The notes under the pieces are model-generated. The model was given only the letters and a program-made list of their open reading frames with translations. It ran no database searches and was not told where the DNA came from. Shown here one piece after another: positions 101 to 6,149 of a stretch of 11,976 nt of DNA. Source of the stretch: an uncultured Oscillospiraceae bacterium (GTDB taxonomy: Bacteria > Bacillota > Clostridia > Oscillospirales > Oscillospiraceae); NCBI GenBank assembly GCA_934668605.1, contig CAKUNY010000058.1, forward strand, positions 1 to 11,976, written 5' to 3'. Each line of letters starts with the position of its first letter. The stretch's first letter is position 1. The position numbers were made by a program, and so were the translations under genes.

Positions 101-130
101 AAGCCCCGGAAGATTGGTCTTCCGGGGCTT
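101..130 (+). terminator. Terminator-like hairpin after the partial gene
   Basis: A perfect 13-bp stem is formed by AAGCCCCGGAAGA (101-113) and TCTTCCGGGGCTT (118-130) with a TTGG loop. It lies 24 bases after the stop codon of the partial gene. No long T run follows, so termination may be inefficient or the hairpin may mainly protect the 3' end. The stem is nearly the same as that of the hairpin at 333-362, on the other side of the repeat. Confidence 0.65.
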
Positions 131-140
131 CAGTATATCA

Positions 141-329
141 AAAAACCTCGTAGAGTTTCGCCCCGCAGGGCGAAATTAAATGGAGATCTATTTTATCCGG
201 CGGCTTTGCCGACCGGAAAAATACATATCGCCTCGCAAGTGTGGAATTTTTGCCCCATCGGGGCAAAAATTATGCGCGCAGTCGAGGCGCAGCCCCTTCT
301 GTCAAGAAAGCGTCAGTTTTTTTGACAGG
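141..329. repeat. Structured dispersed repeat, copy 1
   Basis: About 188 bp that reappear at 5936-6122 in the same orientation. Visible hairpins: H1, TTTCGCCC (156-163) with GGGCGAAA (168-175); H2, TCCGG+CGGC (196-204) with GCCG+A+CCGGA (208-217); H3, CGCCTCG (229-235) with CGAGGCG (283-289), enclosing H4, AATTTTTGCCCC (245-256) with GGGGCAAAAATT (260-271); H5, CTGTCAA (299-305) with TTGACAG (322-328). Differences between the two copies inside stems preserve pairing: 202/210 G-C becomes A-T, 234/284 C-G becomes T-A, 302/325 T-A becomes C-G, and 299/328 C-G becomes T-G. This copy lies between convergent gene ends. I do not recognise a named family. No transposase is nearby and no target duplication is obvious. 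Confidence 0.85.
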
Positions 330-332
330 CTC

Positions 333-362
333 AGCCCCGGAAGCCAGATGGCTTCCGGGGCT
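333..362 (-). terminator. Terminator-like hairpin after the threonine-synthase-like gene
   Basis: A perfect 13-bp stem, AGCCCCGGAAGCC (333-345) with GGCTTCCGGGGCT (350-362), loop AGAT. It lies 25 bases beyond the stop codon of the minus-strand operon, so it probably ends that transcript. On the minus strand no T run follows directly. Eleven bases of each arm match the hairpin at 101-130. Confidence 0.65.
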
Positions 363-5905: not shown

Positions 5906-5926
5906 GAGAGCCGCTACGCGGCTCTC
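5906..5926. other. Hairpin in the ATPase 5' leader
   Basis: A perfect 9-bp stem, GAGAGCCGC (5906-5914) with GCGGCTCTC (5918-5926), loop TAC. It lies between repeat copy 2 and the ATPase ribosome site. No T run follows on either strand, so it may stabilise or process mRNA rather than terminate it. Confidence 0.5.
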
Positions 5927-5935
5927 CCAGCGTGT

Positions 5936-6122
5936 AAAAACCTCGTAGAGTTTCGCCCCGCAGGGCGAAATAAAGTAAAATCCATTTTATCCGGCAGCTT
6001 TGCTGACCGGAAAAATACATTACGCCTTGCAAGTGTGGAATTTTTGCCCCATTGGGGCAAAAATTATGCGCGCAGTCAAGGCGCATTCCCTTTTGCCAAA
6101 GAAGCGTCAGCTTTTTTGGCAG
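5936..6122. repeat. Structured dispersed repeat, copy 2
   Basis: About 187 bp matching 141-329 in the same orientation. Hairpins: H1, 5951-5958 with 5963-5970 (same as copy 1); H2, TCCGG+CAGC (5990-5998) with GCTG+A+CCGGA (6002-6011); H3, CGCCTTG (6023-6029) with CAAGGCG (6077-6083); H4, 6039-6050 with 6054-6065 (stem unchanged, loop ATT instead of ATC); H5, TGCCAAA (6094-6100) with TTTGGCA (6115-6121). Stem differences from copy 1 are compensated. It lies between the DUF6110-like gene and the ATPase gene, so a shared minus-strand transcript would carry its complement. No convincing promoter for the ATPase was found in it. Confidence 0.85.
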
Positions 6123-6126
6123 ATGT

Positions 6127-6149
6127 AAGGGCCGCGGGGTGCGGCCCTT
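6127..6149. terminator. GC-rich hairpin after the DUF6110-like gene
   Basis: A 9-bp stem, AAGGGCCGC (6127-6135) with GCGGCCCTT (6141-6149), loop GGGGT, 12 bases beyond the stop codon of the minus-strand gene. There is no adjoining T run, so it may be a weak terminator or an mRNA-stabilising end that lets some transcription continue into the ATPase gene. Confidence 0.45.

What the first reader, a model, noticed from the sequence alone, without database searches (positions are those of the whole stretch)
141..329. Dispersed repeat whose two copies show compensatory changes in three stems
Copies at 141-329 and 5936-6122 share the same five hairpins. H2 pair 202/210 G-C is A-T at 5996/6004. H3 pair 234/284 C-G is T-A at 6028/6078. 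H5 pair 302/325 T-A is C-G at 6096/6119, and 299/328 C-G is T-G at 6093/6122. H1 and the 12-bp H4 stem are unchanged, with a difference only in the H4 loop. Compensated changes in separate stems point to selection on a folded RNA or single-stranded DNA. The T-G pair would be a mismatch in the opposite RNA strand, which slightly favours the plus orientation as the functional strand. This could be an undescribed structured RNA, a mobile palindromic element, or a protein or nuclease target.
Basis: partly seen in the sequence, partly recalled or inferred. Interest (0 to 1): 0.75.

Follow-up and report, generated by a model that had tools for sequence, protein, structure and literature searches.

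The report
Jumping structured RNA beside gene ends
The two repeats are copies of a roughly 200-base mobile DNA element, common in a family of gut bacteria, that carries a strongly conserved folded RNA of unknown function and often lands at gene-end hairpins, which it duplicates so that neighbouring genes probably keep their stop signals.

Summary
The compensated changes in the two window copies exist. The copies belong to a large family: in 104 aligned copies, 53 of 59 base pairs show changes on both sides, with 93.5% of cells paired against 70.5% shuffled and 42-48% slid. A covariance model built here finds it in 157 of 300 sampled genomes of one family of Oscillospiraceae, and 71 times in a genome inferred to be Vescimonas fastidiosa. 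No Rfam 15 family reaches its cut-off.

It is also mobile. In 36 of 91 copies the flanks share a direct repeat of 12 bases or more, mostly a terminator-like hairpin (0.12% of cross-locus pairs). Four of six reconstructed insertion sites are empty in relatives. Some IS1182-family insertion sequences have the same ends and target; 3 of 8 with both ends duplicate the hairpin. Copies whose ends have decayed keep the fold as well as intact copies do, which suggests selection on the RNA itself.

Best reading: an IS1182-type non-autonomous element (MITE-like) carrying a conserved plus-strand RNA. Neither transcription nor function is shown.

The parts
101..130 (.). left flanking hairpin of copy A (AAGCCCCGGAAG / CTTCCGGGGCTT), partner of 333-362
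   Evidence: sequence read directly; shares the exact 11-mer AGCCCCGGAAG with the right flank. It did not pass the T-run rule of the terminator scan
131..145 (+). left terminal repeat of copy A, CAGTATATCAAAAAA (family form CAGYNTGTCRAAAA)
   Evidence: scores 10 of 11 motif positions
146..155 (+). conserved 5' single-stranded motif CCTCGTAGAG
   Evidence: consensus over 104 copies
156..175 (+). hairpin H1
   Evidence: helices 1 and 2 of A9: 6 of 8 pairs with changes on both sides
189..223 (+). hairpin H2 (the outermost pair 189/223 is not supported)
   Evidence: helices 3-5 of A9: 14 of 15 pairs with changes on both sides; 189/223 pairs in only 13 of 104
229..289 (+). H3 with an internal wobble helix GTGTG/CGCGC (239-243/275-279) and hairpin H4 (245-271)
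   Evidence: helices 6-8 of A9: 21 of 24 pairs with changes on both sides
299..328 (+). hairpin H5; its 3' arm contains the right terminal repeat
   Evidence: helix 9 of A9: 12 of 12 pairs with changes on both sides
324..332 (+). right end of copy A, GACAGGCTC
   Evidence: right-end motif 11 of 11
333..362 (.). right flanking hairpin of copy A, terminator-like
   Evidence: terminator-like match
5906..5926 (.). left flanking hairpin of copy B, not a repeat of its right one
   Evidence: terminator-like on the minus strand at 5928-5904; longest repeat shared by the flanks of copy B is 5 bases
5928..5940 (+). left terminal repeat of copy B, CAGCGTGTAAAAA
   Evidence: scores 9 of 11 motif positions
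5936..6122 (+). copy B of the structured element
   Evidence: model R1 match 5933-6130, 216.2 bits; copy B was one of the 18 rows used to build R1
6127..6149 (.). right flanking hairpin of copy B (AAGGGCCGC / GCGGCCCTT)
   Evidence: sequence read directly; not listed by the terminator scan

Best explanation
A non-autonomous mobile element of about 200 bp (MITE-like) with IS1182-type ends, carrying a conserved plus-strand fold of five hairpins, most likely an RNA. Shown here: a discrete unit in tens of copies per genome in some genomes, flanked in many copies by the same hairpin on both sides, absent from the matching site in relatives, with covarying stems and near-invariant unpaired bases. 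Inferred mechanism: an IS1182-family transposase acting in trans joins the element ends at the feet of a terminator hairpin, and repair copies the hairpin to both sides, so neighbouring genes keep a terminator. Inferred afterwards: the terminal repeats and one hairpin decay, H5 becomes the 3' end of the gene that faces it, and the rest of the fold is kept because the transcript is used. The most likely use, which I hold at about one in three, is a cis-acting 3'-end module: a two-way stop plus a protein- or RNase-binding RNA.
For: Covariation in 53 of 59 pairs, none of 500 shuffles reaching it. Plus-strand bias of G.T over A.C, 105 to 29 cells. Flank repeats in 17 of 51 copies against 0.12% of cross pairs and in 36 of 91. 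Empty sites for 4 of 6 copies tested. IS1182 elements with the same end motif flush with a hairpin in 12 of 28 loci by eye, hairpin duplicated in 3 of 8 with both ends. Flank repeats of 11 bases or more track intact left ends: 24 of 28, 12 of 17, 3 of 46, while core pairing stays at 0.925, 0.940, 0.926. Stop codon of the facing gene at the end of H5 in 21 of 42 copies without, 1 of 26 with, duplication.
Against: No IS1182 transposase was found in several element-rich genomes: none in G571, G127, G591, G587, in 16 of 24 genomes including G002, and no PF13751 domain in 6 genomes (where the control rang in only 1 of 14 genomes). Co-occurrence is weak: 24 of 36 with the IS against 133 of 264 without, p = 0.08. 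No promoter signal upstream: 7 of 52 near, 7 of 52 further out, 0 of 39 for copies with flank repeats. Sense placement behind tandem genes is not preferred, 13 against 31. 55 of 91 copies lack a flank repeat of 12 bases, and 17 further copies of G002 all lack one. The searches favour well-folded copies.
Confidence: 0.7

Rival explanations
1. Purely selfish element: the fold serves only its own movement or harmlessness, and copies without terminal repeats are fossils of diverged source elements rather than host-used RNAs.
For: Terminal repeats, target duplication and empty sites show mobility. No promoter is evident. H5 contains the right terminal repeat, so part of the fold is end structure.
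Against: Copies with decayed left ends pair as well as intact ones; the 18 window/G002-type copies, most without flank repeats, have 27 of 60 pairs with double changes. The internal hairpins do not pair the two ends with each other. IS1182 loci examined hold no such fold (best E 0.081).
Confidence: 0.3
2. Trans-acting small RNA: some copies are transcribed as a free RNA ending at H5, and the many copies are a gene family spread by transposition.
For: Near-invariant unpaired bases and strand-specific fold. L010, L012 and L014 have promoter-like sequence just upstream (read by eye). MITE-derived small RNAs are reported in another bacterium (PMC10969869, passages).
Against: No enrichment of -10 motifs upstream over 91 copies.
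Confidence: 0.25
3. Folded single-stranded DNA recognised during recombination, as for integron attC sites.
For: Fold kept while sequence varies, on one strand.
Against: Inverted terminal repeats with a long target duplication fit a DDE transposase (family knowledge). No integrase or HUH gene was looked for, so absence is not claimed.
Confidence: 0.07

Closest known systems
IS1182 family, IS1272 in particular (PMC4923244 and PMC5678879, passages read)
   Same: Targets terminator or palindromic hairpins; here the end motif and the flush hairpin are shared with IS1182 elements of the same bacterial family.
   Different: IS1272 is reported to delete or replace the hairpin without duplication; here the hairpin is duplicated in many copies. 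A duplicating route is only one branch of a model in the legend of Fig. 13 of PMC5678879. The element has no transposase and carries a covarying fold.
BOX, RUP and SPRITE repeats of Streptococcus pneumoniae (PMC3049150, passages read)
   Same: Dispersed intergenic folded repeats, proposed there to be mobilised in trans by an IS with similar ends; SPRITE resembles a terminator and lies near 3' ends of genes.
   Different: In BOX and RUP the terminal repeats pair with each other, according to that paper; here the core is a row of separate hairpins with near-invariant unpaired bases, spread over a whole bacterial family. No sequence comparison with BOX was run.
Transposon-linked structured RNAs such as HEARO and other OMEGA RNAs (recalled)
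   Same: A structured RNA tied to a transposon, often as solo copies.
   Different: No Rfam match at cut-off; the ends are of IS1182 type. No RNA-guided nuclease was searched for.

Membership tests
IS1182-derived MITE | Terminal repeats match those of an autonomous IS | tested here: met
   CAGYNTGTCRAAAA on both; 12 of 28 IS1182 loci by eye, 8 with both ends
IS1182-derived MITE | Same kind of target and target duplication | tested here: met
   Hairpin duplicated: 3 of 8 IS copies; flank repeats of 12 or more in 36 of 91 element copies
IS1182-derived MITE | Empty site in relatives | tested here: met
   4 of 6 copies tested; junctions of three read
IS1182-derived MITE | Autonomous IS in the same genome | tested here: inconclusive
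   24 of 36 IS-bearing genomes also hold the element, 133 of 264 without; none in G571, G127 or G002
IS1182-derived MITE | Internal sequence derived from the IS | tested here: not met
   R1 finds nothing significant in 32 IS loci, best E 0.081; a MITE need not derive from the IS that moves it
IS1182-derived MITE | Moved by the IS1182 transposase | not testable with these tools
   needs a transposition assay
Any Rfam 15 family | Score at or above the gathering cut-off | tested here: not met
   0 matches in the window and in 10 loci; only sub-cut-off matches
Small RNA gene | Own promoter and discrete transcript | tested here: inconclusive
   No -10 enrichment over 91 copies; transcription not testable here
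BOX-type repeat | Sequence or module similarity to boxA, boxB, boxC | not tested
   comparison is by description only

The most novel reading that the evidence does not exclude
A functional structured RNA has been packaged between IS1182-type ends and is spread by transposition through gut bacteria: it lands at terminators, duplicates them so the host pays little, and stays on as a host-used RNA after its ends decay. That would be a mobile, selected non-coding RNA gene rather than merely a folded MITE.
Probability: 0.4. Interest if true: 0.87.

Novelty: new variant of a known kind. Interest (0 to 1): 0.73.

Why it matters
It gives an RNA family, not found in Rfam 15 here, that is present in about half of the sampled genomes of a bacterial family that includes gut commensals, with near-invariant unpaired bases that make its function testable. 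It supplies natural examples of hairpin duplication by IS1182-type ends, a route that the IS1272 paper read here draws only as one branch of a model. It also offers a case of a mobile element that may spare its host by copying the terminator it lands on.

Tried and rejected
Rfam at gathering and relaxed thresholds gave nothing at cut-off. Two exact viral-contig patterns gave no match and a third gave one contig. The single genome-contig scan was thinned too hard by an added 4-mer and returned 2 loci. A dedicated promoter was tested and not found. The fold inside IS1182 elements was sought and not found. A search for further covarying pairs in A9 gave 56 column pairs at the thresholds used, 39 of them in the structure. 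Of the 17 others one looks credible: the bases on either side of CCTCG, G-C in 78 and A-T in 21 of 104, C-C in 3 and A-C in 2. Of the 21 A-T rows, 16 are window or G002 copies, L111, L117 and L189 are from other genomes, and L180 and L187 lack the CCTCG motif, so they are no evidence. The L036 empty site was uninformative, because the relative's contig ends there. Paper searches; no listed title or passage seen describes this element, but most listed papers were not opened. The 3161 microbiome candidates of PMC8040213 (passages) could contain it; supplements could not be opened. Rows dropped: L034 and L059 (no 5' motif in the expected place); loci whose loops did not fit the pattern; L016 and L025 as repeats of L002 and L013. 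In one search L179 was cut by a contig end and its value is invalid, leaving 6 of 19 diverged copies with a shared stretch of 12 or more (cross pairs 3 of 380). L194 and L198 are the two L035 copies fetched again.

Full report
CHECK. The plus strand folds at z = -8.0 and the minus strand at -5.0. No Rfam family reaches its cut-off in the window.

FAMILY. blastn in the plasmid collection found one record, the 861 kb Vescimonas fastidiosa replicon NZ_AP023416, with 32, 33 and 34 places by query and search, and a second V. fastidiosa record, NZ_AP023417, turned up later. There was one faecal record filed as phage, one IMG/VR contig and two genome contigs from a deliberately thinned pattern. One of those genomes, G002 (Oscillospiraceae POC01), holds copies up to 88% identical to copy B. 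A covariance model R1 was built from 18 copies, the two window copies among them. It finds 157 of 300 genomes of the family of G002 at E<=1e-4, with only 8 candidates scored per genome, and 31 of 295 genomes of the order at E<=1e-5. With up to 150 candidates scored it gives 71 hits in G571, 39 in G002 (at least 3 of them antisense echoes of other hits) and 7 in G127. G571 is inferred to be V. fastidiosa because its contig C2 matches the flanks taken from that replicon at 100%. In G571, 66 of 71 hits exceed 90 bits and 5 fall below 70 (counted).

FOLD. Pair counts are (18 copies; 61; 104). In the last, 53 of 59 pairs have changes on both sides; 93.5% of cells pair, 70.5% after shuffling and 42-48% after sliding. 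The alignment was fitted to the model, which leans towards the structure; one search counts on an ordinary MAFFT alignment and gives 27 of 60 pairs and 96.4% against 88.2% shuffled. Bases conserved at 90% or more include CCUCG.AGAGUU at the 5' side and GCGCG.AG after H4, part of them in the wobble helix. The U.G pairs of that helix become C-G in 10 and 7 copies. All 12 counted pairs of H5 show double changes. G.T exceeds A.C at variable pairs by 105 to 29 cells in 61 copies, so the plus strand is the folded one. A variant with a larger H4 (about 100 nt more) occurs twice in G002.

MOBILITY. Outside the core lie CAGYNTGTCRAAAA on the left and TTTTTcGACAGnCTCA on the right. Outside these, many copies have the same hairpin on both sides: shared stretches of 34, 36, 28, 27, 26, 24 and 23 bases in L036, L038, L021, L001, L037, L057 and L041. 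17 of 51 copies reach 12 shared bases, against 0.12% of the cross-locus pairs sampled; in the enlarged set it is 36 of 91. In 17 further copies of G002 none does. The hairpins look like intrinsic terminators by position and shape; in the window only two of four pass a T-run rule. For copy A the two hairpins 101-130 and 333-362 are near-repeats sharing an 11-mer; for copy B they differ.

EMPTY SITES. For six copies with duplication I joined left flank, one hairpin and right flank and searched 32 genomes of the genus of G127. Four sites gave contiguous matches in a relative: L001 in G571 (427 of 427 bases, 95%) and in G592; L023 and L028 in G591; L002 in G587 and in G591. L112 and L021 gave none in another genome. 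Realigned junctions for L001, L023 and L002 show one hairpin and no element.

MOBILISER. IS1182-family transposases (NF033551) occur in 36 of 300 family genomes at E<=1e-50, in 29 over the cut-off. Of 28 such loci scanned, 12 by eye have the end motif flush with a hairpin; the other 16 do not. Of 8 elements with both ends, L144, L150 and L149 have the same hairpin on both sides, L142 and L152 have different hairpins, L147 and L167 have a hairpin at one end only, and L126 runs off its contig. IS1272, of the same family, is published to target terminator hairpins but to delete or replace them without duplication (PMC4923244, PMC5678879; passages); the legend of Fig. 13 of the latter includes a stem-loop-duplicating branch. 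Against this mobiliser: no IS1182 transposase was found in several element-rich genomes, and co-occurrence is only suggestive, 24 of 36 against 133 of 264, p = 0.08 (taking as the same 300 genomes, whose handles agree). A lost or transient IS, or another transposase, remains possible.

AFTER INSERTION. Copies sort by decay of the left repeat: a flank repeat of 11 or more in 24 of 28, 12 of 17 and 3 of 46, with core pairing 0.925, 0.940 and 0.926. The last group's left-end score is at the level of shuffled flanks. If the repeats were present at insertion, the core has been held while they randomised. Two cautions: the searches favour well-folded copies, and insertion without the outer repeats is not excluded. 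In G002, 18 of 20 places fetched later, two of them seen before, are also model hits of 124 bits or more. In copies without duplication, the stop codon of the gene facing H5 lies at the end of H5 in 21 of 42, against 1 of 26 with duplication (genes called from open frames only). This fits H5 serving as that gene's 3' end. No promoter signal precedes the element, and sense placement behind tandem genes is not preferred, 13 against 31.

WHAT IT DOES. Movement and fold are well supported; function is not. I favour a cis-acting 3'-end RNA module, with a trans-acting RNA and a purely selfish fold as rivals. By kind it sits nearest to BOX, RUP and SPRITE repeats (PMC3049150, passages) and to IS1182 elements, and differs in its covarying multi-hairpin core and its duplicated hairpin target.

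WINDOW. Neighbouring genes are ordinary: a PALP enzyme, an L-PSP protein, a PAS/HTH regulator, a P-type ATPase, a DUF6110 protein, a metal-sensitive repressor and an NFACT protein. Copy A lies between the end of the reading frame cut by the window start and the convergent PALP gene; copy B lies between the DUF6110 gene and the start of the ATPase gene, both on the minus strand.

Noticed in passing
L078:1339-1480, L080:1501-1640 (G002); L073, L074, L075 (V. fastidiosa): Other repeats begin with the same CAGCGTGTC[AG]AAAA end; in L080 directly after a hairpin. They share a tract like GAAAGACACCC..GGGTTTC and had no Rfam match at cut-off.
   Followed up: partly
L193:501-790, L204:332-619: Two G002 copies have H4 replaced by a larger domain of about 100 nt more, similar in both, with no Rfam match at cut-off.
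   Followed up: partly
L142, L147, L152, L167: IS1182-type elements with both ends but no duplicated hairpin: different hairpins at the two ends (L142, L152) or a hairpin at one end only (L147, L167); possibly replacement or later rearrangement.
   Followed up: no
L021 left flank (query positions 855-1054): A GTAGGGGCGGGG-type repeat in the left flank of L021 matches many places in G571, G591, G587 and other genomes of the genus; not examined.
   Followed up: no
L171-L178: Diverged members in G307, G330, G348 and G390 have a different H3 (GTGCGTCGA...TCGGCGCG) and no flank repeat of 12 bases.
   Followed up: partly
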